From the NCBI RefSeq assembly GCF_902364025.1, contig NZ_CABJCG010000003.1, positions 186,001 through 250,000 of the forward strand: a stretch of DNA of 64,000 nucleotides, read 5' to 3'. Positions 13,814-36,811 of this stretch are shown in pieces. The stretch's first letter is position 1, and each line of letters starts with the position of its first letter. Below the pieces are notes generated by a model. That model was given only the letters and a program-made list of their open reading frames with translations, was not told the origin of the DNA and searched no databases. The position numbers and the translations under genes were made by a program. Source of the stretch: Enterocloster lavalensis. GTDB lineage: Bacteria; Bacillota; Clostridia; Lachnospirales; Lachnospiraceae.

Positions 13814-13839
13814 GTTTCTTCATAATGCTATAAATTTTT

Positions 13840-14817: not shown

Positions 14818-14971
14818 TATAATGATATGCTGATAGACGTAAATTAAATAAGGGCAATCAACGACACATGTAGCGCACGGCGCATAAATCTGATCACGGT
14901 ACAGATGCATGTGTTGTTTTTTTTGTTGTGATTTTTTGACAGCGCATGGGTTCTGCATGTGCTGTTTTTGC
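14818..14971 (+). promoter_or_regulatory. Leader of the MATE gene with two tandem terminator-like hairpins
   Basis: After a TATAAT element (14818-14823) come two hairpins each followed by T-runs. Hairpin 1 pairs 14860-14870 with 14908-14918 (CGACACATG/CATGTGTTG), followed by seven Ts. Hairpin 2 pairs 14940-14948 with 14956-14964 (CAGCGCATG/CATGTGCTG), followed by five Ts. Within hairpin 1 lie two smaller stems (GCGC/GCGC and ATCTG/CAGAT). The CATG-containing arms of the two hairpins are similar enough to pair with each other, so alternative folds are possible. This layout resembles transcription attenuators of drug-efflux genes. No known riboswitch core was recognised; the -35 element is poor. 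Confidence 0.5.
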
Positions 14972-14991
14972 CTGTAAACCGGAGGTATGTT

Positions 14992-17045: not shown

Positions 17046-18650
17046 TTATTCCCTCACCAGATACGCCATACTCGCGTTCTCGTCGGGATAAATAATAAAC
17101 CCATTCACATCCGCCCCGCTTCCATAGGTCTGCTGCTCGTAATACAGTGGCGCGCCGCAGGCGTCATTTTTCAATTCTTCCTGAATCTGGTACATCACCT
17201 TGGAGCGCTCCTCGGCGTCCAGGATGGTGCTCTGCTCGGCCAGCAGCTGATCCACGGTGGCGTTGCTGAACCGGGAGTAGTTCTGGGGGCCTTCCGTGCC
17301 GAAGTTCATAAACAGATTGAATTCCGGGTCGCCGGTGGGGCAGCCCATGCCCAGAAGGAAGAACTGGTGCTGGCCGGAAGTAGCCTGCTCGCTGTAAGCG
17401 CCCCAGTCCAGAACATTGATCTCCGCCGTGATGCCCACTTCCATCAGCATGGCCTGAATCACCTCCGCCACCTGGCGGTCCATGGCGTAGCGGCCTTCCG
17501 GCGTGCTTAAGGTCAGGGTGAAGCCGTCGGCATATCCCGCCTCGGCCAACAGCGCTTTGGCCTTCTCCTGGTCGAACTCATAGCAGCCCAGCCCCTTGGC
17601 GGAGTTGTCGATCACATTGGACACCATAAAGGAATCCGGGTAGGAGGCCACGTCCCGCATCACGTTCTTGATGATGGACTCCCGGTCGATGGCGTAGTTC
17701 ACGGCCTGGCGCACCCGCACGTCGTCCAGTGGCTTCACTGTGCTGTTCATCCCCAGGAAAATGGTCCGGTAGCCGGTCTCCACCAGCACCTTCACGTTGG
17801 GATCACTCTGCAGTTCCTCGATCTGCACCGGCGGAATACCTGCCACCAGGTCGGCGTCGCCGGTCTTTAACATCATCACCCGGGAGGCGTCCTCGGGCAC
17901 GATGCGGAAGGTAATGGAATCCACCGTGGCTTTCTCCCCCCAGTAATCGTCAAAACGGGTCATCACCAGGCTGCTGCCGTAATCCCAGGACTCCAGCTTT
18001 AAGGGGCCTGTGCCCACGGGGTGCTGACCGAATTCCTTGCCCTGGCTCTCCGCCGACTTGGGGCTCAACATGCCCGTGGTGTAGCTGCTGATCTGAGCCA
18101 GGAACACGCTGCTGGGCTCGGACAAGGTGAAGGCCACCGTATACTCGTCCACCACGTCCACGCTCTTCACCATATCCACCACCGAAGCCTTGGGCGCCGC
18201 AGTCTCGGGATTTTTCAGCCGCTCGATATTGTACTTCACCGCCTCCGCGTTGAAGGTTTCCCCGTCGTGGAATTTCACGCCCTGGCGCAGCTTGAAAGTC
18301 CAGACCGTACCGTCGTCCGAGGTGGTCCAGCTCTCCGCCAGCCTGGGCTTGATGGAGGAATCCGTGTCGCGGTAAACCAGCGTCTCGTAAATCTGGAACG
18401 CCGCTCTGGCCGTGGCGTTGTCGTTGATCAGATGGGGGTCCAGCGTGGTCGGTTCCGTGCCGCAGCAGTAGACAAAATCCTTGCTTTTCGCGGACTCCCC
18501 GCCTCCCGCCGCCTCGGTGGCGGCCGGACTGTTCTGTCCCCCCTGGCTCTCTGCCGTAGCCGCGCCCTTTCCTCCGCCGCAGCCCGCCAGCGCCAGCATT
18601 GTCAGTGTCAATAAAACTGCGCATCCCCTGGTCAAATTTCTTTTTTTCAT
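17046..18650 (-). CDS. Peptide ABC transporter substrate-binding lipoprotein (SBP family 5)
   Basis: A 534-residue family 5 solute-binding protein. The signal peptide ends at lipobox LAGC, followed by a low-complexity Gly/Ala/Ser/Gln linker. The typical start EPTTLDPHLINDNA and the hallmark LRQGVKFHDGETFNAEAV follow, then NYAIDRESI and a long C-terminal domain. Such proteins bind di- or oligopeptides, nickel or glutathione-type ligands outside the membrane. GAGGGG lies before the ATG at 18650; longer in-frame starts lack ribosome sites. It is the last gene of the sigma-54-driven operon with two permeases, two ATPases and an M20 dipeptidase, so di/oligopeptide uptake followed by cleavage is the likely role. 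Confidence 0.92.
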   Translation of the reverse strand: MKKRNLTRGCAVLLTLTMLALAGCGGGKGAATAESQGGQNSPAATEAAGGGESAKSKDFVYCCGTEPTTLDPHLINDNATARAAFQIYETLVYRDTDSSIKPRLAESWTTSDDGTVWTFKLRQGVKFHDGETFNAEAVKYNIERLKNPETAAPKASVVDMVKSVDVVDEYTVAFTLSEPSSVFLAQISSYTTGMLSPKSAESQGKEFGQHPVGTGPLKLESWDYGSSLVMTRFDDYWGEKATVDSITFRIVPEDASRVMMLKTGDADLVAGIPPVQIEELQSDPNVKVLVETGYRTIFLGMNSTVKPLDDVRVRQAVNYAIDRESIIKNVMRDVASYPDSFMVSNVIDNSAKGLGCYEFDQEKAKALLAEAGYADGFTLTLSTPEGRYAMDRQVAEVIQAMLMEVGITAEINVLDWGAYSEQATSGQHQFFLLGMGCPTGDPEFNLFMNFGTEGPQNYSRFSNATVDQLLAEQSTILDAEERSKVMYQIQEELKNDACGAPLYYEQQTYGSGADVNGFIIYPDENASMAYLVRE

Positions 18651-18728
18651 CTTTCCCCTCGTATGATGTATTGTCGCCAATACCCATACCTCTCCTTTCT
18701 TTAGAGTGTTATATCCCTTACACACCCG

Positions 18729-19679
18729 CTACCCCACAAAATGGCAGGCAGCCTGGTGGTCTGTTCCCACATTCTTTAACTCCGGCGTCTCCTGATGGCA
18801 GATTTCCTTTGCCATCCAGCACCGGTTGGCGAACCGGCAGCCGGGCCGCGGATTCACCGGGCTGGGCACGTCGCCCTTTAACAGAATCTGTTCCCTGCGG
18901 TTGTAATTGTACTTGGCGATGGGAACCGCCGACAACAGCGCCCTGGTGTAGGGGTGGACCGGATTGGCGAACAGCTCCCTGGACCGGCAGATTTCCACGA
19001 TCTTTCCCAGATACATCACGATGATGCGGTTGCTGATATGGCGCACCACGCTGAGGTCGTGAGAAATGAACAGGTAGGTCAGCCCCATATTTTCCTGCAT
19101 CTCCTGGAGCAGGTTGAGAATCTGCGCCTGGATTGACACGTCCAGGGAGGACACCGGCTCGTCGCAGACAATGAACTCGGGGTTCATTGCCAGGGCCCGG
19201 ATGATGCCCACCCGCTGCCGCCTGCCCCCGTCCAGCTCGTGGGGGTACGCGTTGTACAGCTTCCGGCTCACGCCGCCCTTACTCATCAGGTCCAGCACCT
19301 TGGCGTTCAGTTCCTTCTTTCCGGCCAGCCGGTTGATGACTAACGGCTCGGAAATGATCTGTCCGATGGTCTTTCGCGGGTCCAGGCAGGAGTACGGGTC
19401 CTGGAAAATGATCTGAATCTGCCTGCGCAGGGACCGCAGCCTGGCCGGGGAACAGGTGAGAATGTTCTCCCCCTTGTAATGGACCTCCCCCGAAGTGTGT
19501 GGGATCAGCCGCAGCACCGTGCGCCCGATGGTGGATTTCCCGCAGCCGCTCTCCCCTACCAGCCCCAGCGTTTCCCCCTTGTTGATGTGGAAGCTGACGT
19601 CGTCCACCGCGTGGAGGGTGCCGCCGGAGACCGGATAATACTTACAGAGATTTTTTACGTCCAGAAGAATCTCACTCAT
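18729..19679 (-). CDS. Peptide ABC transporter ATP-binding protein (DppF/OppF type)
   Basis: A 316-residue ATPase with Walker A GESGCGKST (42-50), Q-loop FQDPYSCLDPR (92-102), Walker B/D-loop VCDEPVSSLD (171-180) and the C-terminal oligopeptide-type zinc/iron-sulfur-like Cys region PGCRFANRC. The ABC signature reads LDGGR (149-153) instead of LSGGQ. I believe other clostridial DppF proteins share this variant, but the Ser-to-Asp change at the ATP-contacting position may make this site degenerate and leave the partner ATPase dominant. It overlaps the preceding ATPase gene by eight bases. Confidence 0.92.
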   Translation of the reverse strand: MSEILLDVKNLCKYYPVSGGTLHAVDDVSFHINKGETLGLVGESGCGKSTIGRTVLRLIPHTSGEVHYKGENILTCSPARLRSLRRQIQIIFQDPYSCLDPRKTIGQIISEPLVINRLAGKKELNAKVLDLMSKGGVSRKLYNAYPHELDGGRRQRVGIIRALAMNPEFIVCDEPVSSLDVSIQAQILNLLQEMQENMGLTYLFISHDLSVVRHISNRIIVMYLGKIVEICRSRELFANPVHPYTRALLSAVPIAKYNYNRREQILLKGDVPSPVNPRPGCRFANRCWMAKEICHQETPELKNVGTDHQAACHFVG

Positions 19680-20655
19680 CTTTGCCGCCTCCTTGATATT
19701 TGTGGCATTTCACCATGTGCTCGCTGTCCACCCGGATTTCCTCCGGTTCCTTTACCCGGCAGATGTCCATAGCCTCGCTGCAGCGCTTGCAGAACTTGCA
19801 GCCTTCCGGCAGGTTCATGGGGTCCGGCATGGCGCCCGGAATGATCTGCAGCCGTTTGGACTCCACGGACTCGATGTCCGGCAGGCAGCCGAACAGCCCC
19901 CTGGTGTAGGGGTGCAGGGGATTGGTGAAAATGGACTTGATATCCCCCTTCTCAATCACGCTGCCCGCGTAGGCTACCACCACATAGTCCGCGATCTCCG
20001 CCACCACGCCCAGAGCGTGGGTGATAAATATGATGGAGGTGTCGTACTGATCCTTAAGCCCTTTCATCAAATTCAGAATCTGCGCCTGGATGGTCACGTC
20101 CAGGGCCGTGGTGGGCTCGTCGGCGATCAGCAGGCTGGGATTGCAGGCCAGCCCCATGGCGATGCACACCCGCTGCCGCATGCCCCCGCTGAACTCGTGG
20201 GGGTAGTTGGCCGTCCGCTCCCTTGGGATTCCCACCACTTCCAGCATATCCCCGGCCCGCTTCTCCGCCTCCGCCTTGTTCACGTTCTGGTGCTGCATGA
20301 TCACGTTGGCGATCTGCCGCCCCACCGTGTAGACCGGATTCAGCGAGGTCATGGGGTTCTGGAAAATCATGGAAATTTTATCTCCCCGGTACTTCCGCAG
20401 CTTTGCCTCGCCTGCCTTCAGCAGGTCCTCGCCGTCAAAGAGGATTTCCCCCTCTGTAATCACGCCGGGAGGCGACTGCACCAGCCCCATCACGCTCAGC
20501 GCGGTGGTTGTCTTGCCGGCCCCCGTCTCGCCCACCAGACCCACGGTCTTTCCCCGGGGGACGTCAAAGCTCATGCCGTTGATGGCCTTCACCACACCGT
20601 CGAAGGTGCGGAACTCCACGCTGAGATTTTTGATCTCTAATATATTTTCACTCAT
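19672..20655 (-). CDS. Peptide ABC transporter ATP-binding protein (DppD/OppD type)
   Basis: A 327-residue ATPase with Walker [10 protein letters not shown] (42-50), a standard FSGGMRQRV signature and [11 protein letters not shown]alker B/D-loop, and the CKFCKRC oligopeptide-transporter C-terminal Cys motif. It pairs with the DppF-type subunit to drive import. The ATG at 20655 has GGGGAG five bases upstream and directly follows the M20 peptidase gene. Unlike its partner it keeps a canonical signature. Confidence 0.92.
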
Positions 20656-20714
20656 AAACACTCCCCTTTCGTCGCCGCCCTCCGGCGCGGTGTATGTTCC
20701 GGCGCGCTGCCGCG

Positions 20715-22085
20715 CTAACACAGATATTCATAGAAAATATTGGCCATATACTTGATGCCGGTCAGGTACTGTTCAATGCTGATGTTTTCATTTGGCGCGT
20801 GGGTATTGGCGGTGGCAAAGGGCGCTCCCAGGCCGATGACGAAGATGTCCCCTCCGATGTAGCGCGGGAACAGCCCGAAGGGAGCGGTGCCGTCCAGATA
20901 GGGCCAGACCACCGGGTCCCGGCCGTATACCTCCTTGGCAAGCCGTCCGGCCAGCTGCACCAGCTCGTCGTTTGGCGGAACCTTGTAGGGCGGAATGCTG
21001 GGCACCGCCGTCACCTCAAACGGCCCGTAGGGGGAAGCCTTCACAAACTCCTCCAGCCGTTTCGCGGCATCCTCCGCCGTCATGTCCTTGATCAGCCGCA
21101 AATCCAGCCGCACCCAGGCGTCGCAGGGCACGATGGTCTTTCCCCGTTCCCCGGTCCAGCCGCTTTTGATCCCGGAAATGTTGCAGGTGGGCCGGTACAG
21201 CAGCTCCTTCACCAGCTCCTCCCCGTCCTTGTCCCCGCAGACCAGCCGGTCCACGGCGTACTCTGTCTTGTAATCACCCAGATCCATGGGAACAGTGCCA
21301 ATCAGCGCCAGTTCCTCCTCCGTCGGAGGCAACACCGCGTCCAGATAGCCCGGTATGGTAATGTGATGATTTTCGTCCATCATGGAATTTAACAGCCGCA
21401 CCAGATCCCAGGCCGCGTTGGGGATCAGCGGGGCCTGGCCGGAGTGCACGTCCCGCTTGGCCCGGTGGCAGGAGATTTCCGCCCGCACCATACCCTTGCA
21501 GCCCAGATACATCTGAGGCCGCCCTGACTCGTGCACGCCCCGGTCGCAGGCCACCGCGCCGTCCGCGTGAAGCTCGTCCGCAAAACGGCTGAGATAACGC
21601 TCCAGATTGGGGCTTCCGATCTCCTCCTCGCCCTCCACAAACAGCTTGATTCCCGGGGGAACCTCCCCCAAAAGCTCCTTCAAAACCTCCAGCGCCTTCA
21701 TGTTGGCGTAGAGATTCCCCTTGTCGTCCGTTGCGCCCCGGGCGTACACATACCCGTCCCGAATCTCCGCCCCAAAGGGATCGGACTGCCACTGGTCCAG
21801 CGGATCGGGGTCCTGCACGTCGTAATGGTTGTAGACGAACAGCTCCTTCTTCTCCCCCTTTTTAGGGCTTCTGGCAAATACCGCCGGGAACGCCCCCTCC
21901 ACCTGCAAAAGTTCCGTTTTCAGTCCAAGGCCCTCCAACTCTTCCCGGAGCATATCCACACACTCCTCCATGCCCTGGTTCACGGTGGAAATGCTGGGCT
22001 GGCGCAGAAAGCGCTGCAGCTCCTCCACCAGACGCCCGGCGTTGGCGTCCACATAAGCCGATATCTGTTCCCTGATTGCCGTCAT
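20715..22085 (-). CDS. M20 family dipeptidase
   Basis: A 456-residue M20/M25 zinc peptidase. Metal and catalytic motifs are YNHYDVQDP (His87, Asp89), GATDDKG (Asp120) and EGEEEIGS (catalytic Glu near 153), with a lid domain in the middle and a late metal His near TANTHAPNEN (about 430). It hydrolyses short peptides in the cytoplasm. Its position between the permease and ATPase genes of a peptide importer suggests it cleaves the imported substrate, as in other clostridial dipeptide operons. GGGAGGT lies before the ATG. Confidence 0.92.
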   Translation of the reverse strand: MTAIREQISAYVDANAGRLVEELQRFLRQPSISTVNQGMEECVDMLREELEGLGLKTELLQVEGAFPAVFARSPKKGEKKELFVYNHYDVQDPDPLDQWQSDPFGAEIRDGYVYARGATDDKGNLYANMKALEVLKELLGEVPPGIKLFVEGEEEIGSPNLERYLSRFADELHADGAVACDRGVHESGRPQMYLGCKGMVRAEISCHRAKRDVHSGQAPLIPNAAWDLVRLLNSMMDENHHITIPGYLDAVLPPTEEELALIGTVPMDLGDYKTEYAVDRLVCGDKDGEELVKELLYRPTCNISGIKSGWTGERGKTIVPCDAWVRLDLRLIKDMTAEDAAKRLEEFVKASPYGPFEVTAVPSIPPYKVPPNDELVQLAGRLAKEVYGRDPVVWPYLDGTAPFGLFPRYIGGDIFVIGLGAPFATANTHAPNENISIEQYLTGIKYMANIFYEYLC

Positions 22086-22104: not shown

Positions 22105-23010
22105 TCAATCCTTCATCTTGGGGTCCAGAACGTCCCGCAGGCCGTCGCCCAGAAGGTTTAAGCCCAGCACCAGAAACAGGATGGCCAGGCCGGTGTACGT
22201 GGTCACGTGGGGGGCTACCAGCAGGTACTGGCGGCCACTGGAGAGCATTGCGCCCCATTCCGGCGTGGGCGGCTGGGCTCCGATCCCCAGAAAGCCCATG
22301 CCCGAGGTGGTGATAATGGCTGTGCCGAAGCTCAAAGTTCCCATGACGATCATGGGCGAGACGATATTGATGAGGATATGAGAAAATACGATGCGGATAT
22401 CCCCTGAGCCCATGGCTCTGGCCGCCTCGATAAACTCGCTGTTTCTGAGAGCCAGGGTCTCCCCCCGCGCCATCCGGGCGAAATTAGGCACCGTGTAAAT
22501 GCCCACGGACAAAATGGCGTTGTCCAGATTGGGCCCCAGCACGCTGACGAACACGATGGACAGCAGGATGCCCGGAAATGCCAGCAGCACGTCCATGGCG
22601 CGCATGATGAGAAGATCCACCTTCCCGCCGAAATATCCGGCGAAAATCCCCAGGGGAATCCCGATCACAAAGGCCACGCCCACCGCGTAGAAGCCCACCT
22701 TCATGGAAATCCGCGCCCCGTAAATGATCCTGCTCAAAATATCCCGTCCCATCTCGTCGGTTCCCAGGAGATGTTTGGGCCCGGGCGTCTGCAGCATGTT
22801 GGCCAGATCCTGCTTCACCGGATCGTAGGGGGCCAAAAGCGGCGCGAAGATCGCAACGATGATATAGATCAGCACGATCACCAGCCCCAGCACCGCCACC
22901 TTGCGCTTGCAGAAGCTGTACCACATGCGGCGGAGCTGATTGCCCACCACCACTTCATTATCTTCATCCTGCAACAACATGCAGGCCATGTTCTGATTCT
23001 CTGCGCTCAT
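22105..23010 (-). CDS. Peptide ABC transporter permease (DppC type)
   Basis: A 301-residue permease with a soluble N-terminal tail, one early membrane segment, the DppC hallmark HLLGTDEMGRDILSRIIYGAR near residue 75 and the EAA loop EAARAMGSGDIRIVFSHIL near 190. It forms half the membrane channel. Gene spacing to the dppB-type permease is 15 bases, within the same sigma-54 operon. Confidence 0.93.
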   Translation of the reverse strand: MSAENQNMACMLLQDEDNEVVVGNQLRRMWYSFCKRKVAVLGLVIVLIYIIVAIFAPLLAPYDPVKQDLANMLQTPGPKHLLGTDEMGRDILSRIIYGARISMKVGFYAVGVAFVIGIPLGIFAGYFGGKVDLLIMRAMDVLLAFPGILLSIVFVSVLGPNLDNAILSVGIYTVPNFARMARGETLALRNSEFIEAARAMGSGDIRIVFSHILINIVSPMIVMGTLSFGTAIITTSGMGFLGIGAQPPTPEWGAMLSSGRQYLLVAPHVTTYTGLAILFLVLGLNLLGDGLRDVLDPKMKD

Positions 23011-23025
23011 AATCTCTCTCCCTCC

Positions 23026-23946
23026 CTACACATATTTGATCCGAGGGTTAATCAGCACGTACAGCACATCCACAAACAGATTCACCGCCACAAAGGACAC
23101 CGCGATCACCAGAATGGTCGTCTGCACCACTGGGAAATCCCTGGCCTTGATGGCCGTGATCACCAGCTCGCCAAGCCCTGGCCAGCCGTACACCTTCTCC
23201 GTGATCACCGAACCGCCCAGCAGTGTGCCGAACTGGATGCCCGCCACCGTGACGATGGAGTTCATGGCATTTTTCAGCGCGTGGCTGAAAATGATCTTCC
23301 GGCTGTTAAAGCCCTGGGCCTTGGCCGTCAGGATGTAGTCCTGGCTCATGACCTCCAGCATACTGGACCGGGTCATGCGGGCGATGGTGGCAAGGCTTCT
23401 GGCCGACAGCGTCAGGGACGGCAGGATCATGCCCACAAAGCTGACCTCGGCGGTGATGGGAAGCCATTTCAGGATGACGCAGAAAATCAGCATCAGCATG
23501 AGCCCCAGGTAAAAGGGCGGAATAGACAGTCCCACCAGCGCCAGCACCATACTGACGCTGTCAAAAATCGAGTTCCGCTTGGTGGCGGAAATGAGCCCGA
23601 TCCCGATGCCGAACACGATGGAGATCACAATGGCCGCCACCGCCAGCAGCATGGTATTTGGAAAACGGATGGCGATCTCCTGGGCCACCGGACGCCCGGT
23701 ACGGAAGGAGGTGCCGAAGTCGCCCCGGAGGGCTTTACTTATGTAGCGGAAATACTGCTCGTACAGCGGTCTGTCAAATCCGTAGGCCACCCGGATCTTC
23801 TCCACATCCTGCTCCGTGGCCGTGTCCCCGGCCATGATCCGCGCCGGGTCCCCGGGCATCACATGCACCATCAGAAACACCAGAATCGAGACGACAATCA
23901 AAACCGGAATCAGCGTGCACAATCGTTTTAATATAAATTTTCTCAT
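23026..23946 (-). CDS. Peptide ABC transporter permease (DppB type)
   Basis: A 306-residue permease with six membrane segments, N-terminal MRKFILKRL start, MPGDPARIM motif near residue 30 and the EAA loop TAKAQGFNSRKIIFSHALKN near 200. First gene of the leftward operon; the transcript should start about 110 bases upstream at a sigma-54 promoter. It forms the second half of the channel with the DppC-type protein. Confidence 0.93.
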   Translation of the reverse strand: MRKFILKRLCTLIPVLIVVSILVFLMVHVMPGDPARIMAGDTATEQDVEKIRVAYGFDRPLYEQYFRYISKALRGDFGTSFRTGRPVAQEIAIRFPNTMLLAVAAIVISIVFGIGIGLISATKRNSIFDSVSMVLALVGLSIPPFYLGLMLMLIFCVILKWLPITAEVSFVGMILPSLTLSARSLATIARMTRSSMLEVMSQDYILTAKAQGFNSRKIIFSHALKNAMNSIVTVAGIQFGTLLGGSVITEKVYGWPGLGELVITAIKARDFPVVQTTILVIAVSFVAVNLFVDVLYVLINPRIKYV

Positions 23947-24067: not shown

Positions 24068-24085
24068 GAGCAATTTCAGTGCCAA
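24068..24085 (-). promoter_or_regulatory. Sigma-54 promoter of the peptide transporter operon
   Basis: Reading leftward, TTGGCAC (24079-24085), five bases, then TTGCTC (24068-24073) match the sigma-54 consensus TTGGCAC-N5-TTGC. Start of transcription would be near 24058. Its -24 element abuts the U-tract of the regulator gene's terminator. Confidence 0.9.
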
Positions 24086-24086
24086 A

Positions 24087-24119
24087 AATTCCGCGCCTTC
24101 CCCCGCGGCGCGGAAAATT
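24087..24119 (-). terminator. Terminator of the sigma-54 activator gene
   Basis: Reading leftward, TTCCGCGCC pairs with GGCGCGGAA across a short loop, followed by TTTTTGG. The last bases are shared with the -24 element of the next promoter. Confidence 0.8.
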
Positions 24120-24211
24120 CTTTTATTTGCTGGTATTTTTTTATATCTGACAAATTAATAACAAACTTTCTGCAGAATTTTTCTCATCCCTGCCCCTGCT
24201 TTTGCCTTTTT

Positions 24212-24253
24212 TGTTGCAAAATGGCAACATTTTCTGCATCATTTCCTGCAACA
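24212..24253. promoter_or_regulatory. Candidate upstream activator sites (TGTTGC inverted repeats)
   Basis: TGTTGC-AAAATG-GCAACA (24212-24229) is an interrupted palindrome, and a further TGCAACA lies at 24247-24253. They sit about 130-170 bases upstream of the sigma-54 promoter, the usual distance for enhancer-binding proteins. TGTTGCA also occurs twice in front of the activator gene itself. Confidence 0.6.
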
Positions 24254-24268
24254 CTCCCCCGGTACGCC

Positions 24269-26236
24269 TCAAATTCCATATTTCTGCCGCTTCCGCCAGA
24301 GGGTGGACCGGTCCATTCCCAGCAGCTTCGCCGTCCTGCTCTGGTTGCCCTGGCACTGCTTCAGGCCCCAGAGAATCAGCTCCCGCTCGCTGACGCCGGA
24401 GGGCTGCTCCTTCTTATATTCACGCTCCCAGGTTCCGGCGCTCTGCCCGTCGTCTCCCTCCGCTGGCAGTTCCTCGTCCTCCACGTCCCGTGGATAGAGA
24501 ATCTGTTCCATGTCCGCCGCGGAGATTCTTCCGCCCCGGCAGAGAACCATAATGCGCTCTGTCACATTTTCCAGCTCCCGGATATTTCCCCGGAAAGGAT
24601 AGCTGCGAAACATCGCAAGGGCCTCCGGCTCCATGGCGGGCGCGCCCGTCCGGTCCGCCCCGTAGGAGTCAAGCAGCCGCCCGAACAGCAGCCAGGCGTC
24701 CTGGCCCCGCTTGCGCAGCGGCGGGATCAGCAGACGCAGCACATCCAGCCGGTACATCAAATCCCTCCTGAAATCCCCCCGGCCCGTCAGCCGCGTCAGA
24801 TTCTTGTTGGTGGCCGAGATAATCCGCACATTGACAGAGATCACCTTGTCGTCCCCAATGCGCCGCACCTCCCGCTCCTGGAGGGCGCGCAGCAGCTTGG
24901 TCTGGATGGCCAGGGAGATTTCCCCGATCTCGTCCAGAAACAGGGTTCCGCCGTGGGCCTGCTCGAACAGACCCATTTTCCCGCCCTTGGCCGTCCCCGT
25001 GAACGCCCCCTCCACGTAGCCGAACAGCTCGCTCTCCAGCAGATTCTCCGGCAGAGCCGCGCAGTTGATGGCCACAAAGGGGCCGTTCTTGCGCTGGCTG
25101 GCGTTATGGATGCTCTGGGCGAACAGCTCCTTGCCGGTGCCCGTCTCCCCAAGAATCATCACGTTGGCCTCCGAGGCCGCGTATCGGCGGGCCTGGGCGA
25201 TGGTCTCCTCCATCACCGCGCTCTCATGGATAATGTCGTCGAAGGTATACCGGGCCCTCAGCCCCTTCTCCCCCATTTTCCGGCGGATTTTACCCTCCAT
25301 CTCCTGTATCTTCGTGATATCGGACACGTTGACTACCACGCCCGCCACCTTCCGGCCTACCACCACAGGGGTAAATTCCGCCGAAACCGTGATCCGGGTC
25401 TGGGGAAAGGTGTAAATTTTCCCGCTGACCTCCCGGCCGGTGGCCACCGCCTCCCGAAACGGCTCCGCGAAAAATGGGATCACCTCCTCCAGCTTCCGGT
25501 GCATCAGACTGTTGTTCCCTTCCATCTCCCGGATCACACGGTTGCGCACCTGGATGATTCCCCGGCTGTCCACGTAGAGAATCCCCTCTTTCGAGGCGTA
25601 GATGATGGTTTTGTAGGTCTGGGACACCACCTGCTCCTTGCGGATCTGCTCCACAATCCGAACCGCCTCGCCCAGGGCCTGGCGGATCGTGTCCTCGCCG
25701 GTGCGGATCACCACCGAGGGCATCCCCTCCTGTTTTGCGTACAGGTTCACGGAATAGCCGCCGATCACCGCGTCGCAGCCCTCCTCCCTGGCCTGGCGGA
25801 TCACCTGGGCCAGCTCCTCCGGGCGGGTAGTCATATAGGCTCTGGCCTGACAGCCGAAATGGCCGCACACCGCCTCCACCTCGTAGAGCGGCCCGTCCGG
25901 GCTGATCACCGCGATCTTTCCCGGATTGGTCAGCTCCTTGCACTCCATGATAGCCCGGACAATGTCGTAGCTGGAAATTTCCAGGCCGATCACCGGCACC
26001 TGATCCGCAAGCTGGCGGATCTTCTGGGCCGAATACCCCCTTGCGATCACCGCGTCGTAGGCGCTCACGTCCATTTTCTCCGGCATCTCCTCCACCGTCA
26101 GAACCCGGATATCCACCGCGATCCGGCTGCGCTCCGGGTGATTGCGGACCACAAACTCCGCCTTCTCCTTCAGCTCCGGGTACGGCACCACAAACAGCAG
26201 CCGCGTTTTCGCCGGCCTGCCCCCCTCCTGTTTCAT
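24269..26236 (-). CDS. PrpR-type sigma-54 dependent transcriptional activator
   Basis: A 655-residue enhancer-binding protein. Residues 1 to about 190 match the PrpR N-terminal ligand-sensing domain; about 205-315 look like a PAS domain. The AAA+ domain follows (about 330-565), with Walker A GETGTGKE (363-370) and Walker B TLFLDEIGE (430-439). A Fis-type helix-turn-helix closes the protein (about 620-655, QSRTAKLLGMDRSTLWRK). The sigma-54 contact loop is GAFTGT (410-415) rather than GAFTGA. GGAGGT stands before the ATG at 26236; a longer in-frame start lacks one. With sigma-54 promoters facing both flanking operons, it most likely activates both. The inducer, probably a small organic acid, is unknown. 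Confidence 0.93.
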   Translation of the reverse strand: MKQEGGRPAKTRLLFVVPYPELKEKAEFVVRNHPERSRIAVDIRVLTVEEMPEKMDVSAYDAVIARGYSAQKIRQLADQVPVIGLEISSYDIVRAIMECKELTNPGKIAVISPDGPLYEVEAVCGHFGCQARAYMTTRPEELAQVIRQAREEGCDAVIGGYSVNLYAKQEGMPSVVIRTGEDTIRQALGEAVRIVEQIRKEQVVSQTYKTIIYASKEGILYVDSRGIIQVRNRVIREMEGNNSLMHRKLEEVIPFFAEPFREAVATGREVSGKIYTFPQTRITVSAEFTPVVVGRKVAGVVVNVSDITKIQEMEGKIRRKMGEKGLRARYTFDDIIHESAVMEETIAQARRYAASEANVMILGETGTGKELFAQSIHNASQRKNGPFVAINCAALPENLLESELFGYVEGAFTGTAKGGKMGLFEQAHGGTLFLDEIGEISLAIQTKLLRALQEREVRRIGDDKVISVNVRIISATNKNLTRLTGRGDFRRDLMYRLDVLRLLIPPLRKRGQDAWLLFGRLLDSYGADRTGAPAMEPEALAMFRSYPFRGNIRELENVTERIMVLCRGGRISAADMEQILYPRDVEDEELPAEGDDGQSAGTWEREYKKEQPSGVSERELILWGLKQCQGNQSRTAKLLGMDRSTLWRKRQKYGI

Positions 26237-26264
26237 ACGGACACCTCCTGATATGTTGGTAAAA

Positions 26265-26282
26265 TGTTGCAGATGTGTTGCA
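26265..26282. promoter_or_regulatory. Two TGTTGCA direct repeats in front of the activator gene
   Basis: TGTTGCA occurs at 26265-26271 and 26276-26282, just upstream of the activator start and about 250 bases before the rightward sigma-54 promoter. It matches the half-site of the palindrome at 24212-24229. It could serve both autoregulation and activation of the acid-sugar operon. Confidence 0.55.
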
Positions 26283-26531
26283 TTATGGAAATCATACAAC
26301 GGCAGTGCTCACCGCGTCAATGACCATATTTTCCCATATTTTTCATTTTTCTGTTTCAAAAAATTCCCCTCCCAGTCTGACGTCCCGGGGTTTTCCACCA
26401 CGCGCCGGCTAGACCCCAGCGCATTTCCGCTATGCGGCTGCCGCCGGCCGGAGATTCCCGGCTGCCCCGCGGAGGAGACGGGGACAGCCGCTCGAAGGCT
26501 GGAGAACGCGCCATCGTTCCGTCATTAAAAT

Positions 26532-26549
26532 TTGGCACCAAACTTGCTT
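26532..26549 (+). promoter_or_regulatory. Sigma-54 promoter of the acid-sugar operon
   Basis: TTGGCAC (26532-26538), five bases, then TTGCTT (26544-26549) match the sigma-54 consensus exactly. Transcription would start near 26560, about 33 bases before the first gene, which has GGAGG upstream. Confidence 0.92.
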
Positions 26550-26592: not shown

Positions 26593-28008
26593 ATGATTTA
26601 CAGTCATCTGTTTCAACCGTTTTTGGAAAAGGGCAGGGAGGTCCAGGCAGCGGTGATCGGCGCGGGGCATTTCGGCACCGCCGTTGTGACCCAGCAGAAC
26701 CAGACACCCATGCTGCGGGTCAGCGTGGTGGCGGACAAGGACCCCGAGCGGGCGAAAAGCGCGTTTGTGAAGGCGGATATCCCGGAGGAATATATCGTCT
26801 ATTCCGCCGACGCGGCGGAGGCGGCGGCCCTGATCCGGGAAGGCCGGTACATTTATACCGACAATCCCATGATGATCATGGATATTCCGTGCATCGAGGT
26901 AGTCTGCGAGGGCACCGGCGTCCCGGAGGCGGGAGCCGGATTCTGTGTGGCCGCCCTGGAAAAGGGCAAGCACGTGGCCGCCATCAGCAAGGAAATGGAC
27001 AGCGTGGTTGGCCCTATTCTGAAAAAAATGGCCCGGGAAAAGGGTCTGGCTTACTCCCCGGTGGACGGCGACCAGCCTGCGCTTTTGATGGCCATGGTGG
27101 AGTGGGCCAGATCGGTGGGCCTGACCGTAATCTCCGCGGGTAAGGCCAGGGACGGGGAATTTGTACTGGACGAGGACAAGGGCGCCGTGTCCATTTCCGC
27201 CGACGGCATCACCGTGCACGAGGACTACGTGGCCTACGTTTCCCCTGAGGACCTAAAGTATTTCCATAAAATCCCATCAGGAAAAGCTGTGGAATACCTG
27301 AAAGGCCGGGCCAAAGCCCTTGCAGGACTTCCGGGGGCCGGAGCCTTCGATCTGTGCGAGCTGACCATGATCGCCAACGCCACCGGGCTGAAGCCGGCCT
27401 GTCCTGAGCTCACCGACGGCATTCTGCGCATCACGGAGCTGCCGGTGGCCTACTGCGCCCGGCGCAACGGAGGCATTTACCAGGATGAGGGGATCATCGA
27501 CGTGCACACCAACCTGCGGCGCAGGGACGAGTCCGGCATGGGCGGCGGTGTTTACATGGTGGTGCGCTGCGACAACGCGTACTCCAATTACATTTTGACC
27601 ACCAAGGGGCAGATTCCCAACGATGATTGCTCTGCGGCCGTCATCTACCGCCCCTACCACCTGTGCGGACTGGAGGTCTCCATCACCATCCTCTGCGCCG
27701 CTCTGCTGGGGACCGACACCGGCACACTGGAATATATTCCCCGGTTCGACCTGGTCAAAAAGGCGCTCTGCGACATCCCCGCCGGGGAGGTCCTGGGAAA
27801 TGACCACGATCTGCGCCTGAAGGCCATGATAAAGCCCGCAAGTCCCAAAGCGCCGGACAATCCCATCCCCGCCCACATGATCACCGGCAACCGGGCGGCC
27901 CGGGATATCAAGGCCGGGGAGCTGATCACCTACGGCATGGTCGAGGACCGGTCCGACACCACCCTGTGGCGGCTGAGAGAGCGCCAGGACCGGGAATTCG
28001 GGTTATAG
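26593..28008 (+). CDS. SAF-domain, homoserine-dehydrogenase-like NAD(P) oxidoreductase
   Basis: A 471-residue protein with an N-terminal Rossmann fold (VIGAGHFGTAVV near residue 22), a central homoserine-dehydrogenase-like region (CEGTGVPEAGAG, SKEMDSVVG) and a C-terminal SAF domain (about 370-455). Members of this family occur with sugar-acid kinases and are thought to act on polyhydroxy acids; the reaction is not established. GGAGG lies before the ATG at 26593; the in-frame ATG at 26578 is too close to the promoter. First gene of the sigma-54 operon. The likely role is to oxidise or otherwise prepare the C4 acid that the next two enzymes use; that is inference. Confidence 0.8.
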   Translation: MIYSHLFQPFLEKGREVQAAVIGAGHFGTAVVTQQNQTPMLRVSVVADKDPERAKSAFVKADIPEEYIVYSADAAEAAALIREGRYIYTDNPMMIMDIPCIEVVCEGTGVPEAGAGFCVAALEKGKHVAAISKEMDSVVGPILKKMAREKGLAYSPVDGDQPALLMAMVEWARSVGLTVISAGKARDGEFVLDEDKGAVSISADGITVHEDYVAYVSPEDLKYFHKIPSGKAVEYLKGRAKALAGLPGAGAFDLCELTMIANATGLKPACPELTDGILRITELPVAYCARRNGGIYQDEGIIDVHTNLRRRDESGMGGGVYMVVRCDNAYSNYILTTKGQIPNDDCSAAVIYRPYHLCGLEVSITILCAALLGTDTGTLEYIPRFDLVKKALCDIPAGEVLGNDHDLRLKAMIKPASPKAPDNPIPAHMITGNRAARDIKAGELITYGMVEDRSDTTLWRLRERQDREFGL

Positions 28009-28024: not shown

Positions 28025-29467
28025 ATGGCAGTCTTGGGATGCATCGCCGACGATTTCACCGGCGCCAGCGACGCGGCCTCCTTTCTGGCCGCGGGCGGGA
28101 TGGCGGTCCGGCTCTTTAACGGGATACCGGAGGGAAAGACGGAGACAGACAGAATAAAAGAATGGCTGCGCAGCGGGACGCCTGCCGGGGGCGATACCGG
28201 GGCGGCCCTGGTGGTTGCGCTGAAAACGCGGACCCAGCCGGCGGGGCAGGCGGTCCGCGACTCCCTGGCGGCCCTCAGATGGCTGCGGGACCAGGGCGCC
28301 GGTCAGTTTTATGTCAAATACTGCTCCACCTTCGACTCCACCCCCGCGGGCAACATCGGCCCCATCGCGGACGCCGCCATGGAGTTTACCGGAAGCCCAT
28401 ACACCCTCCTCTGCCCTTCTCTCCCGGTCAACGGGAGAACCGTGGCGGCGGGGCATCTCTATGTGAACGGCGTCCCGCTGGACCAAAGCCCCATGAAGGA
28501 CCATCCGTTAAATCCCATGTGGGATTCCTTCCTCCCCGCCCTGATGGAACCCCAGAGCCGCTGGGAATGCCTGCTGCTCGAAAGGGCCTGCCTGTCCTAC
28601 TCCCGGGAAACCGTGGAGGCGGGGCTGATGAAAAAAGCCAGGAGTCTGGGCCTGGACCGCTTTTACGTAGTGCCCGACTATGGAAATACACAGGACGGCG
28701 AGCGGATCGCGGCGCTCTTCGGACACCTGCCTCTTTTGACGGGAGGGAGCGGATTGCTGGAGCCGTTGGCACGGAGATTGACGGGGGGAAGCAGGGCGCA
28801 GGAAACGCGAGAGGGGGAATATGAGACAGGGGGAGGTGGGGATTGCGGCCGGCAGAGCGGCGATTATCCCCGGCAATCCGGCGACTGTGCCGTGCAGGCC
28901 GGCGTTTTCACCTCCTCCCCCGCCCTTCTGCTGGCAGGGAGCTGTTCGCCGGCCACGCTGGCTCAGATCGCCTATTTTGAGAGCCGGGGCGGCATCGCAA
29001 AGAAACTGGAGCCCGCCCTGGTTCTGGACCATTCTCCCGAGGAGGCGGCTCAGTCACTCTGGCATTTTCTGGAAAATCACCGCGGCCAGCCGGTCCTGAT
29101 TTACAGCTCTGAGACCGCGGAACAACTCCAGGCGACCAGAAAGCTGGCGGGAGGCAGGCCCCTCTCCCCACTTTTGGAGGAGACCGTGGCCCTGCTGGCC
29201 AGCAGGGCTGTAGAGCGGGGATGGCGACGGCTCATCGTGGCCGGGGGCGAGACCTCCGGGGCCGTCACCCGCAAGCTGGGCCTGAACTCCTACGACATCG
29301 GAGCCAGCGTGGCGCCGGGCGTTCCTGTGCTGATCCCGCCGCAGTTCCCGGAGCTGCGGATCGTACTCAAATCCGGGAATTTCGGCCAGAAAGACTTCTT
29401 CTTCCGCGCGCTGGAGATCACCGGGGATGACAAAATCTGCGAACCGCAGAGAGGAGATGTGACATGA
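28025..29467 (+). CDS. DUF1537 four-carbon acid sugar kinase (OtnK/DtnK-like)
   Basis: A 480-residue kinase of the family shown to phosphorylate 3-oxo-tetronate, threonate or erythronate. The N-terminal substrate domain starts ADDFTGASD (residues 9-17) with KYCSTFDSTPAGNIG near 99. The C-terminal nucleotide domain carries VAGGETSGAVTRKLG near 405. Between them, about residues 250-300, is an unusual Gly/Gln/Ser-rich linker with a 7-residue repeat (RQSGDYP, RQSGDCA). It phosphorylates the C4 acid for the adjacent aldolase. The aldolase start overlaps its stop by four bases, so the two are coupled. Confidence 0.9.
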   Translation: MAVLGCIADDFTGASDAASFLAAGGMAVRLFNGIPEGKTETDRIKEWLRSGTPAGGDTGAALVVALKTRTQPAGQAVRDSLAALRWLRDQGAGQFYVKYCSTFDSTPAGNIGPIADAAMEFTGSPYTLLCPSLPVNGRTVAAGHLYVNGVPLDQSPMKDHPLNPMWDSFLPALMEPQSRWECLLLERACLSYSRETVEAGLMKKARSLGLDRFYVVPDYGNTQDGERIAALFGHLPLLTGGSGLLEPLARRLTGGSRAQETREGEYETGGGGDCGRQSGDYPRQSGDCAVQAGVFTSSPALLLAGSCSPATLAQIAYFESRGGIAKKLEPALVLDHSPEEAAQSLWHFLENHRGQPVLIYSSETAEQLQATRKLAGGRPLSPLLEETVALLASRAVERGWRRLIVAGGETSGAVTRKLGLNSYDIGASVAPGVPVLIPPQFPELRIVLKSGNFGQKDFFFRALEITGDDKICEPQRGDVT

Positions 29468-30102
29468 ATCAGAATCAATACCTGCCGGAGATTCCGGCGG
29501 ATGACGATATAGAAACAATACTCTCGGAAGCCGTCTGGGCCGCCCACAGCCTGTTCCAGCGTGGCAAGACCTCCGGCTCCTCCGCCAATTTAAGCGTAAT
29601 CCACAACGGCGTAATCTACATTTCCGCCAGCGGAACCTGCTTCGGAACCCTGACCACAAAAGATTTCGCCGCCGTTGCGCCCGACGGAACCGTTCTCCCC
29701 GGAAAAAAGCCCAGCAAAGAGCTGCCTCTGCACCGGATGCTCTACCAGTCGGACGCCGCCGTCCGGGCGGTCATCCACACCCACAGCACCTATAGCGTGC
29801 TCTGGAGCTGCACGGGGTATGCCGCCGCCCATCCATTTAACTGTATCCCGCCCATCACGCCCTACCTGGACATGAAGCTGGGACCTGTGGGCCTTGTTCC
29901 CTACGAAAAGCCCGGCTCCGAGGAACTCTTCGCCGCCTTCGGCAACGTCTTGGGCAAAAGCAGCGGCTTTCTGCTGAAGCAGCACGGACCGGTGGTGCCG
30001 GGGAAAGATGTGATGGATGCGTTCTTCCGGCTGGAAGAGCTGGAGGAGAGCGCCAGGATCGCCTGGGAGCTGAGAAATGAGGCGGATTTTCCATTCGCCT
30101 GA
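29464..30102 (+). CDS. Class II aldolase / 3-oxo-tetronate 4-phosphate decarboxylase (OtnC-like)
   Basis: A 212-residue class II aldolase/adducin enzyme with zinc ligands in HTHSTYS (His105, His107) and LKQHG (His174) and a catalytic Glu in SKELPLHR (Glu86). In known DUF1537 pathways this partner decarboxylates 3-oxo-tetronate 4-phosphate to dihydroxyacetone phosphate, entering glycolysis. Its four-base overlap with the kinase gene supports that pairing; an L-fuculose or ribulose phosphate aldolase is an alternative. Last gene of the sigma-54 acid-sugar operon. Confidence 0.88.
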   Translation: MNQNQYLPEIPADDDIETILSEAVWAAHSLFQRGKTSGSSANLSVIHNGVIYISASGTCFGTLTTKDFAAVAPDGTVLPGKKPSKELPLHRMLYQSDAAVRAVIHTHSTYSVLWSCTGYAAAHPFNCIPPITPYLDMKLGPVGLVPYEKPGSEELFAAFGNVLGKSSGFLLKQHGPVVPGKDVMDAFFRLEELEESARIAWELRNEADFPFA

Positions 30103-30221: not shown

Positions 30222-31250
30222 TCACCCCAACGCCATCTCCAACGCCATCAAATCCTCCTCCGTCGTAGACCAGCTGGTCGCGAACCGCACAACCGTATGC
30301 TTCTCATCCAGATTTTCCCAGAAACTGAACGCCACATCCCGCTTCAACCGCTCCATCCGCTCATTTTCCAGAATGACAAATTGCTGATTCGTCGGCGACT
30401 CAATATGGAACTTGTACCCTTTTCCGGTGAAAATCCCTTTCATCCGCTCCGCCATCTCGATGGCGTGGCTGCTGATTTTAAAATACAGATCATCCGTAAA
30501 CAGCGCGTCAAACTGAATCCCCAGCAGCCGCCCCTTAGCCAGCAGCGCTCCCCGCTTTTTAACCGACGTCATAAAATGCCTCGGCTTATTGTTCTTGGTA
30601 AACACCACGGCCTCCCCGCACAGCGCGCCCACCTTGGTGCCGCCGATGTAAAACACATCGCAGATTCGCGCAATATCGCAGAGCGTCATATCGGATTCCT
30701 GGCTCATCAGCCCATATCCCAGGCGCGCGCCGTCCAGAAAAAGCGTCATGCCGTACTGATGGCAAATGTCCGCGATCGCTTCCAGCTCCTGTTTCGTATA
30801 AAGCGTGCCGTACTCCGTGGGATGGGACAAATAGACCATTCCCGGAAATACCATATGCTCGTGGTTGGCGTCGGCATAGAAATCCGCCACATACCCGGCC
30901 AGCACATCCGGCACAATCTTCCCATTCTGCTCCGGCAATTCCAAAACTTTATTCCCGGTGTACTCGATAGCCCCGGCCTCATGGACGCTCACATGCCCCG
31001 TTTTTGCGGCGATCACGCCCTCGCAGTCCCTCAACATGGTCGAGATAATCACCGCGTTCGCCTGAGTCCCGCCCACCAGAAATTCCACCTCCGCATGTTC
31101 GCACCGGCACGCGGCCCTGATCTTTTCCCGGGCGCTCTCACAATATTTGTCCGTCCCGTAGCCGGACAGACATTCAAGGTTTGTCTCCGCCAGACGTTTC
31201 ATGATCTGCGGATGCGCTCCCGCTATATAGTCGCTTTCAAAAAAAACCAT
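30222..31250 (-). CDS. Threonine-aldolase family PLP enzyme (second copy)
   Basis: A 342-residue beta-eliminating lyase family member with PLP Lys in FYIGGTKVGAL, FLDGARLGYG and FLVGGTQAN. It is a distant paralogue of the 10908-11942 protein. The family cleaves threonine-like amino acids or eliminates from phenylserine-type substrates; this copy's substrate is open. AAGGAG lies seven bases before the ATG at 31250; an in-frame start at 31295 lacks one. Its base composition is a little more AT-rich than the first copy. It stands alone, apart from any folate gene. Confidence 0.85.
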   Translation of the reverse strand: MVFFESDYIAGAHPQIMKRLAETNLECLSGYGTDKYCESAREKIRAACRCEHAEVEFLVGGTQANAVIISTMLRDCEGVIAAKTGHVSVHEAGAIEYTGNKVLELPEQNGKIVPDVLAGYVADFYADANHEHMVFPGMVYLSHPTEYGTLYTKQELEAIADICHQYGMTLFLDGARLGYGLMSQESDMTLCDIARICDVFYIGGTKVGALCGEAVVFTKNNKPRHFMTSVKKRGALLAKGRLLGIQFDALFTDDLYFKISSHAIEMAERMKGIFTGKGYKFHIESPTNQQFVILENERMERLKRDVAFSFWENLDEKHTVVRFATSWSTTEEDLMALEMALG

Positions 31251-31331
31251 ATCTGAACTCCTTAACCTCTGATTTTGATTCCGCTGTAAACCCACAAATT
31301 GGAACGCTATAAATATCTCTGAAGAATCGTT

Positions 31332-36172: not shown

Positions 36173-36811
36173 CTAAAGTTTCGAATACCCATAACTGTTC
36201 ACCAACGCATCCAGCTTAATCCCCTTCTGACAGAACGGGCAGTCGCGGTAGTCGTGGGCCTGGTAATCCGGCAGGTCCCGCATGCCAAAAATGCTGTTGA
36301 TGTGAATACCGTCCGTCTCCTCAATGGCAGAGAAAATGGTGGAGATACCGGCCAGAATCCCGCCATAATAGCGGATGCACTCGATGCCCTTGGCAATGGT
36401 CTTGCCCGTGGTGATGGAAGCCATCAAAAGGATCACATTCTTGCCCGTGACCATGGGCTGGGTGTTCTCGCGGAACACCATCTGGCTGTTGCTGTTGTAC
36501 TCAGGCGCGATCACATAAATGGTCTGGTGAGCGTTCTTTGACATCACGCCCGCATTGGTCAACGCCTCGGCCAGATACGCGCCGATGATCTGAGTGCCGT
36601 CCAGGCAGACGATGGTGTCCACCACCGTGTCGTACATATACATGCCGGCCAGGGCCTCCGCCGCCTGGCGGGCCTCGCTCATCCTGGCCTTTAAGGTGGT
36701 CACGTCAAGATAGTAGTTGATGTGGGAGTGGTTGGTGGCAAAATGTCCCGGCGTAATCTTCAGTGGCACGTGGTTGTTCGTGGATGTGATCTTAAATGTC
36801 CGGCTATCCAT
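36173..36811 (-). CDS. Orotate phosphoribosyltransferase-like protein
   Basis: A 212-residue type I phosphoribosyltransferase with a PRPP-binding-type segment VILLMASITTGKTIAKGI near 132-149 and a hood-like start. A CxxC-type motif (DCPFCQKG) near the C-terminus may bind zinc. Such proteins transfer ribose 5-phosphate to a base, but classical PRPP residues (two acidic residues before the loop) are replaced here by Met-Ala-Ser, so activity may be altered or regulatory. GGGGG lies six bases before the ATG at 36811. Confidence 0.7.
   Translation of the reverse strand: MDSRTFKITSTNNHVPLKITPGHFATNHSHINYYLDVTTLKARMSEARQAAEALAGMYMYDTVVDTIVCLDGTQIIGAYLAEALTNAGVMSKNAHQTIYVIAPEYNSNSQMVFRENTQPMVTGKNVILLMASITTGKTIAKGIECIRYYGGILAGISTIFSAIEETDGIHINSIFGMRDLPDYQAHDYRDCPFCQKGIKLDALVNSYGYSKL

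What the first reader, a model, noticed from the sequence alone, without database searches (positions are those of the whole stretch)
24068..26549. A divergent sigma-54 regulon centred on one PrpR-type activator
The activator gene sits between two operons whose promoters both match the sigma-54 consensus (TTGGCAC-N5-TTGC at 24068-24085 and 26532-26549). One operon imports and cleaves peptides; the other handles C4 acid sugars. Joining these under one activator is unusual and suggests a single substrate, perhaps a peptide or amide conjugate carrying a C4 acid, or nutrient-limited switching between both.
Basis: partly seen in the sequence, partly recalled or inferred. Interest (0 to 1): 0.75.

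Follow-up and report, generated by a model that had tools for sequence, protein, structure and literature searches.

The report
Sigma-54 acid-sugar regulon, swapped uptake module
A gut bacterium related to Enterocloster asparagiformis appears to switch on, through one activator, both a peptide importer with a peptidase and a short pathway that burns four-carbon sugar acids, which hints that it may feed on sugar acids linked to amino acids; the control signals are well conserved, but the food itself is still a guess.

Summary
The only two exact TGGCAC-N5-TTGC sites in 64 kb flank one PrpR_N-type sigma-54 activator (24269-26236, minus). One precedes oppBC-M20-oppDF-SBP, the other DRL-otnK-otnC.

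TGTTGC half-sites recur in both gaps.

In all 16 loci otnK-otnC stands beside the activator, so it is an acid-sugar regulator. The other side holds KdgT plus an amidohydrolase (6), GntP plus an alcohol dehydrogenase (6), is off the contig (2), or, in this window and E. asparagiformis only, Opp plus M20. These two also carry a distant DRL (about 30% identical). The upper pathway was exchanged behind conserved enhancers. DRL may replace LtnD and OtnI, neither above cut-off in 11 relatives.

A single substrate, such as an amide of a C4 sugar acid (threonyl-lysine), is plausible but not shown; independent peptide scavenging is the main rival. New variant of a known kind.

The parts
17046..18725 (-). 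family-5 solute-binding protein (last gene of the opp operon)
   Evidence: SBP_bac_5, 360 bits; nearest solved structures are peptide, glutathione-type, haem and nickel binders
18729..19679 (-). OppF-type ATPase
   Evidence: ABC_tran + oligo_HPY
19672..20721 (-). OppD-type ATPase (ORF as listed; the true start may lie further in)
   Evidence: ABC_tran + oligo_HPY
20715..22085 (-). M20 peptidase
   Evidence: Peptidase_M20 + M20_dimer; nearest solved: Sso-CP2 carboxypeptidase, then dipeptidases; metal-ligand motifs present by eye (sequence)
22105..23010 (-). OppC-type permease
   Evidence: BPD_transp_1 + OppC_N
23026..23946 (-). OppB-type permease (first gene of the opp operon)
   Evidence: BPD_transp_1
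24069..24084 (-). -24/-12 site before opp, TGGCACTGAAATTGCT
   Evidence: exact match; equivalent site in 13 of 14 readable loci
24212..24229 (.). enhancer palindrome TGTTGCAAAATGGCAACA
   Evidence: 1 found, 0.02 expected; aligned block in sister lineages
24247..24253 (-). further TGTTGCA half-site
24269..26236 (-). PrpR_N-type sigma-54 activator, 655 aa
   Evidence: domains; orthologue clade
26265..26282 (+). two TGTTGCA half-sites 257-268 bases ahead of the -24 element
   Evidence: aligned block in sister lineages
26533..26548 (+). -24/-12 site before DRL-otnK-otnC, TGGCACCAAACTTGCT
   Evidence: exact match; equivalent site in 16 of 16 loci
26593..28008 (+). DRL (DXR-II-like) oxidoreductase with SAF domain, 471 aa from ATG 26593
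   Evidence: DRL_cat + SAF; match to 3upl/3upy
28025..29467 (+). 3-oxo-tetronate-kinase-type (OtnK, DUF1537) kinase
   Evidence: NF043035 385 bits, cut-off 350
29464..30102 (+). OtnC-like class II aldolase/decarboxylase
   Evidence: Aldolase_II; best NCBIfam model NF043034, below its cut-off

Best explanation
One sigma-54 regulon for the catabolism of a sugar acid. The PrpR_N-type activator senses an intracellular ligand, binds TGTTGC-type enhancers on both sides of its own gene and fires two -24/-12 promoters. DRL oxidises the sugar acid, probably straight to 3-oxo-tetronate, so that no separate LtnD and OtnI are needed; OtnK phosphorylates it and the OtnC-like enzyme decarboxylates it to dihydroxyacetone phosphate. 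In this lineage the carboxylate permease and its partner enzyme found in other lineages are replaced by an Opp importer and an M20 peptidase, and DRL by a distant relative. The most likely reason is that the sugar acid arrives bound to an amino acid or peptide, enters through Opp and is freed by M20. Shown at sequence level: both promoters, the half-sites, their conservation, the gene content, the exchange. Inferred: ligand, DNA binding, the DRL reaction, and that M20 releases the sugar acid. My odds: about 0.85 for one regulon under one activator, 0.65 for DRL doing the work of LtnD and OtnI, 0.4 for a conjugate substrate; the figure below is for the whole chain taken loosely.
For: Exact sites and their rarity. 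Promoters in 16 of 16 and 13 of 14 gaps; TGTTGC/GCAACA halves 39 and 30 against 3.5 expected in each set (shuffle maxima 9 and 10). Activator clade of 12 tree rows, support 100/99; otnK-otnC beside the activator in 16 of 16 loci. Enhancer blocks align with sister lineages while the genes behind them differ. Where DRL2 stands in its own unit (L032, L050, L053, L083) it has its own -24/-12 site and half-sites. rpoN in 11 of 11 relatives. OtnI and LtnD over cut-off in 0 of 11; canonical DXR in 11 of 11, so DRL is not needed for isoprenoids. Relatives of the activator share exact contig lengths with DRL relatives (3 pairs) and M20 relatives (2 pairs). In 6 loci the slot holds KdgT plus an M38-type hydrolase; metal ligands are kept in the 5 of these 6 copies that I aligned.
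Against: No transcript, binding or growth data. Opp-M20 in this slot is seen in two near-identical loci only, and no contig in the protein lists shows activator, DRL and M20 together. Six of 14 readable loci have no hydrolase in the slot. The OtnC-like enzyme is below its family cut-off. Weaker LtnD-family matches exist in 11 of 11 genomes (best 216 bits, cut-off 350) and OtnI-family ones in 10 of 11 (best 78, cut-off 325), so an unusual LtnD or OtnI elsewhere is not excluded. DRL relatives in 6 of 20 genomes have no OtnK in the fetched stretch, so DRL is not tied to this pathway alone. The window's DRL is only 28-31% identical to that of the other loci. The 16 loci are not independent.
Confidence: 0.5

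Rival explanations
1. One activator, two jobs: the opp-M20 operon scavenges ordinary peptides and was recruited to the sugar-acid activator as an extra source of nitrogen and carbon. The M20 products do not enter the DRL-OtnK-OtnC pathway.
For: M20 and Opp families are general peptide scavengers; six of 14 readable loci have no hydrolase in the slot; in G016 an opp-M20 operon stands beside another PrpR_N activator, away from otn.
Against: The slot otherwise holds the uptake step of the sugar-acid pathway, and DRL was exchanged in the same lineage, which fits a change of substrate better than an added function.
Confidence: 0.32
2. The family-5 importer carries a non-peptide conjugate of a sugar acid (glycoside, ester, opine-like compound) and the M20 enzyme is a deacylase or hydrolase of another kind.
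For: Solved relatives of the binding protein include agrocinopine and nickel binders; M20 relatives include deacylases such as DapE/ArgE.
Against: The best-scoring solved relatives of M20 are a carboxypeptidase and dipeptidases.
Confidence: 0.12
3. The sugar acid is not a tetronate: DRL, kinase and aldolase handle a related acid such as a branched or C5 acid.
For: OtnC below its cut-off; DRL relatives occur with other sugar-acid genes, such as a dehydratase-family gene in G1088 and a 5-keto-L-gluconate-epimerase-like gene in G428.
Against: The kinase passes the 3-oxo-tetronate kinase cut-off in the window and in 6 other loci tested, while apionate- and threonate-kinase models score far below theirs.
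Confidence: 0.2
4. The two promoter-like sites are chance matches or relics.
For: At two mismatches the motif is as common in the window as chance predicts.
Against: Conservation in 16 of 16 and 13 of 14 gaps.
Confidence: 0.02

Closest known systems
L-threonate / D-erythronate pathway LtnD or DenD, OtnI, OtnK, OtnC (Zhang et al. 2016; not read, known here only as cited in passages of PMC12540250 and PMC10580937)
   Same: OtnK-type kinase over its cut-off; an Aldolase_II-type enzyme, the type PMC12540250 (passages) gives for OtnC of the 3-oxo branch
   Different: no LtnD or OtnI over cut-off in 11 relatives; a DRL oxidoreductase present instead; sigma-54 control, not the DeoR-family VdtR described for Brucella (PMC10580937, passages)
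PrpR and PrdR enhancer-binding proteins
   Same: PrpR_N sensor, sigma-54 AAA+ domain, Fis-type HTH; PrdR and PrpR are the best NCBIfam hits
   Different: both below the equivalog cut-offs (372 against 795; 372 against 499); the neighbours are otn genes
Sigma-54 regulons of Clostridiales (Nie, Dong and Yang 2019, PMC6615313; abstract, outline and passages seen)
   Same: PrpR_N among the activator domains; upstream sites built of inverted TGT/ACA repeats in many groups; control of catabolic operons
   Different: the words DUF1537, four-carbon and oligopeptide do not occur in the main text; its supplements were not available to me
DXR-II (DRL) and the uncharacterised DLO1/DLO2 oxidoreductases (PMC3847144, abstract, outline and passages; structures 3upl, 3upy)
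   Same: related over nearly the whole length; Lys191 equivalent kept
   Different: Asp where DXR-II has Thr229 in 21 of 21 sequences aligned; ordinary DXR present as well

Membership tests
PrpR_N-type sigma-54 activator | PrpR_N sensor + sigma-54 AAA+ domain + Fis-type HTH | tested here: met
   all three over Pfam cut-offs
PrpR_N-type sigma-54 activator | GAFTGA sigma-54 contact loop (motif recalled) | tested here: inconclusive
   reads GAFTGT in relatives P0242-P0245 and P0250 and, by eye, in the window
PrpR (propionate regulator) proper | score over TIGR02329 cut-off | tested here: not met
   371.6 against 499.2 bits
Sigma-54-dependent promoter | TGGCAC-N5-TTGC, correctly placed, conserved, rpoN in the genome | tested here: met
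   rpoN in 11 of 11 relatives; the window's own assembly is not held
Sigma-54-dependent promoter | mapped start and dependence on RpoN and the activator | not testable with these tools
   needs an experiment
3-oxo-tetronate kinase (OtnK) | score over NF043035 cut-off | tested here: met
   385 against 350 bits; also in 6 of 6 other loci tested, 414 to 452 bits, one of them (L116) outside the 16
[quoted passage not shown]
   176.7 against 250 bits; best-scoring model, so called OtnC-like only
canonical threonate/erythronate pathway | LtnD and OtnI in the genome | tested here: not met
   0 of 11 relatives over either cut-off; in the controls 1 of 14 named genomes is over each; two of the 11 genomes are under 90% complete
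DXR-II (DRL) isoprenoid enzyme | Thr229 substrate anchor (PMC3847144, passages) | tested here: not met
   Asp in 21 of 21 aligned sequences
M20 dipeptidase/carboxypeptidase | M20 and dimerisation domains | tested here: met
   PRK06446 356 bits against a cut-off of 369; specificity not testable here
Opp/Dpp-type importer | two permeases, two ATPases with oligo_HPY, family-5 binding protein | tested here: met
Opp/Dpp-type importer | the cargo is a peptide | not testable with these tools
   relatives bind peptides, haem, nickel and opines

The most novel reading that the evidence does not exclude
A dedicated regulon for eating amide-linked sugar acids, such as the threonyl-lysine that forms when vitamin C degrades on protein lysines. 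Opp imports the conjugate, M20 frees the acid, and a DXR-like oxidoreductase turns it in one step into 3-oxo-tetronate (the work of LtnD and OtnI) for OtnK and OtnC. In sister lineages an unrelated amidohydrolase does the same job behind a sugar-acid permease.
Probability: 0.22. Interest if true: 0.8.

Novelty: new variant of a known kind. Interest (0 to 1): 0.55.

Why it matters
It gives a testable job to two loose ends: the DXR-II-like oxidoreductases of unknown function, which have OtnK in the fetched stretch in 13 of 20 genomes found to carry one, and the way these Lachnospiraceae could run OtnK without a recognisable LtnD and OtnI. It shows an upper pathway exchanged behind a conserved sigma-54 activator. 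If the conjugate idea is right, it points to a bacterial route for breaking down amide-type glycation products; the review PMC8116961 (passages) says that no enzymatic degradation of threonyl-lysine is known.

Tried and rejected
Chance origin of the sites: rejected by the orthologue test. DRL as an isoprenoid enzyme: rejected, ordinary DXR in 11 of 11 genomes (in G004 only a fragment of 29 bits) and no Thr229. Activator as PrpR or PrdR proper: below cut-offs. Sensor domain tracking the import module: not seen, L049 (GntP) and L051 (KdgT) share 73% in PrpR_N. G858 (L116) as a second case of Opp beside DRL-otn: not used, because the binding-protein ORF matches only the first part of its family, OppD and OppF are fragments, and no -24/-12 site lies before them. 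G016, with an opp-M20 operon beside a 46% relative of the activator and DRL2-otnK-otnC elsewhere without an activator in the stretch: suggestive, but that activator falls outside the clade (which also warns of long branches there) and only one half-site precedes its opp promoter, so not counted. A search for M20 in 145 relatives found no close copy outside G001 (next best 38%). Literature: threonate + sigma-54 + Lachnospiraceae, 0 papers; four-carbon acid sugar kinase + SAF domain, 0; any two of sigma-54, PrpR, four-carbon acid sugar, 13 papers, 8 listed, none of these 8 with the third term; any two of Enterocloster, sigma54, threonate, 4 papers, none on this subject by title and abstract start (one of them, PMC11770544, looked at in passages); a wide search was uninformative. 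Only the open papers held were searched.
Full report
What was checked. The window has exactly two TGGCAC-N5-TTGCW sites and one more at a single mismatch with GG and GC fixed. They flank a PrpR_N-type sigma-54 activator and face away from it. The minus-strand site precedes oppB-oppC-M20-oppD-oppF-SBP; the plus-strand site precedes DRL-otnK-otnC. Both gaps also hold TGTTGC-type half-sites, among them a perfect TGTTGC-N6-GCAACA.

Where it comes from. The window's own assembly is not held. The nearest held genome, G001, has one contig of the same length as [Clostridium] asparagiforme DSM 15981 (CP102272.1). Its activator is 98% identical and the locus is collinear, with 92-100% protein identity.

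Orthologues. I gathered 16 loci with close activators, window included. In 16 of 16 otnK-otnC stands beside the activator, read away from it; in the window and G001 the DRL gene comes first. OtnC is cut by the contig end in L047 and matches in two pieces in L084. The other side holds Opp-M20 in 2 (window, G001), KdgT plus an amidohydrolase in 6 (G003, G004, G006, G010, G013, G014), GntP plus a zinc alcohol dehydrogenase in 6 (G009, G054, G103, G1015, G1103 and an Angelakisella MAG, L034), and is off the contig in 2 (L033, L035). In G003 the kdgT and amidohydrolase matches are broken into pieces; in G006 the activator is split by an insert and a transposase lies between kdgT and the amidohydrolase. 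Several loci are close kin (window with G001; G003 with G006 and G014; L033 with L034), so independent lineages are fewer than 16. The type is rare: 5 of 397 genomes of the family have an activator at E 1e-190 or better.

Test of the regulon. With one mismatch allowed, the gap before the activator holds a correctly oriented -24/-12 site in 16 of 16 loci and the gap after it in 13 of 14; dinucleotide shuffles give means of 0.14 and 0.16 gaps and never more than 2. In the miss, L117, a one-mismatch site at 13827 overlaps the start of the GntP match and so falls outside the gap as I drew it. TGTTGC/GCAACA halves total 39 and 30 against about 3.5 expected in each set; two or more halves occur in 14 of 16 and 11 of 14 gaps. 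The control regions of the window align with those of G004 and G010, the nearest lineages in the tree, half-sites included, although the genes behind them differ. So the control region looks inherited while the genes were exchanged. Where DRL2 stands in its own unit (L032, L050, L053; also L083 of G016) it has its own -24/-12 site and half-sites. rpoN is present in 11 of 11 relatives tested.

The chemistry. OtnK is over its family cut-off in the window and in 6 of 6 other loci tested. The class II aldolase is best matched by the OtnC model but below its cut-off. According to PMC12540250 (passages) the 3-oxo branch runs through LtnD and OtnI and uses an Aldolase_II-type OtnC. Neither LtnD nor OtnI passes its cut-off in 11 genomes; weaker matches are present in 11 and 10 of them. 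The gene that is present is DRL, related over nearly its whole length to Brucella DXR-II. In 21 of 21 sequences aligned the Lys191 equivalent is kept and Asp, in a DLCE motif, stands where DXR-II has Thr229 (residue roles from passages of PMC3847144). All 11 genomes also have ordinary DXR. I infer that DRL makes 3-oxo-tetronate; this is not shown. Of 20 genomes found to carry a DRL relative (a sample weighted towards the window's kin), 13 have OtnK in the stretch fetched, one (G004) has DRL2 at a contig end with otn on another contig, and 6 have none.

The exchanged module. The window's DRL is 28-31% identical to the DRL2 of the other loci, and Opp-M20 stands where the others have a permease and a partner enzyme. 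Among solved structures M20 is closest to a carboxypeptidase and dipeptidases. The KdgT-linked amidohydrolase has among its solved relatives an arginine carboxypeptidase, an Xaa-Pro dipeptidase, an amide hydrolase and ochratoxinase, besides unnamed amidohydrolases and proteins called imidazolonepropionase; HxH, Lys, His, His and Asp are kept in the 8 sequences aligned, 5 of them from these loci (by eye). Two unrelated amide-type hydrolases in one regulatory slot is what a conjugate substrate would predict; the GntP-dehydrogenase variant lacks one and presumably imports a free acid. Elsewhere, relatives of the activator share the exact longest-contig length with DRL relatives (6552, 34107, 26447) and M20 relatives (13456, 15288), all within ranks 2-10 of each list. 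This suggests linkage beyond the two confirmed genomes, but no contig in these lists (best 120 each) shows all three.

A candidate substrate. PMC8116961 (passages) describes threonyl-lysine, an amide formed when ascorbate degrades, and says that no enzymatic degradation is known. It would fit import by Opp, cleavage by M20 and use by DRL-OtnK-OtnC. This is a proposal, not a result.

Verdict. A conserved sigma-54 regulon for sugar-acid catabolism, with an unusual peptide-type uptake module in one lineage: a new variant of a known kind. The case for the regulon is strong; the substrate is open.

Noticed in passing
window 14959-16968: MATE-family transporter and a cytidylate-kinase-like domain in one 669-residue ORF.
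   Followed up: no
window 30222-31295: Beta-eliminating-lyase-family gene convergent with the otnC-like gene, in the same place in E. asparagiformis; no NCBIfam match at 1e-20.
   Followed up: partly
window 36391-36405: A third -24/-12-like site with one mismatch, plus strand.
   Followed up: no
L053 8057-9366 and 12316-13572: In G006 the activator gene is split by an insert with transposase-type domains, and an IS110-type transposase lies between kdgT and the amidohydrolase.
   Followed up: partly
L054 1396-10486 and L083 7075-10563: G016 has an opp-M20 operon beside a distant activator and, elsewhere, DRL2-otnK-otnC with a sigma-54 site and half-sites but no activator in the stretch.
   Followed up: partly
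L113 11081-13040: In G1088 one ORF joins the front of a PrpR_N activator to part of a family-1 binding protein, perhaps a deletion fusion or an assembly fault.
   Followed up: no
L116 8917-19648: In G858 DRL2, a MatC-type transporter gene, otnK and otnC are followed by opp fragments, an enolase-superfamily gene and a beta-lactamase-family gene.
   Followed up: partly
L047 6876-8141, L054 6-905: A 421-residue protein without Pfam or NCBIfam match sits near two of the regulon-type loci.
   Followed up: no
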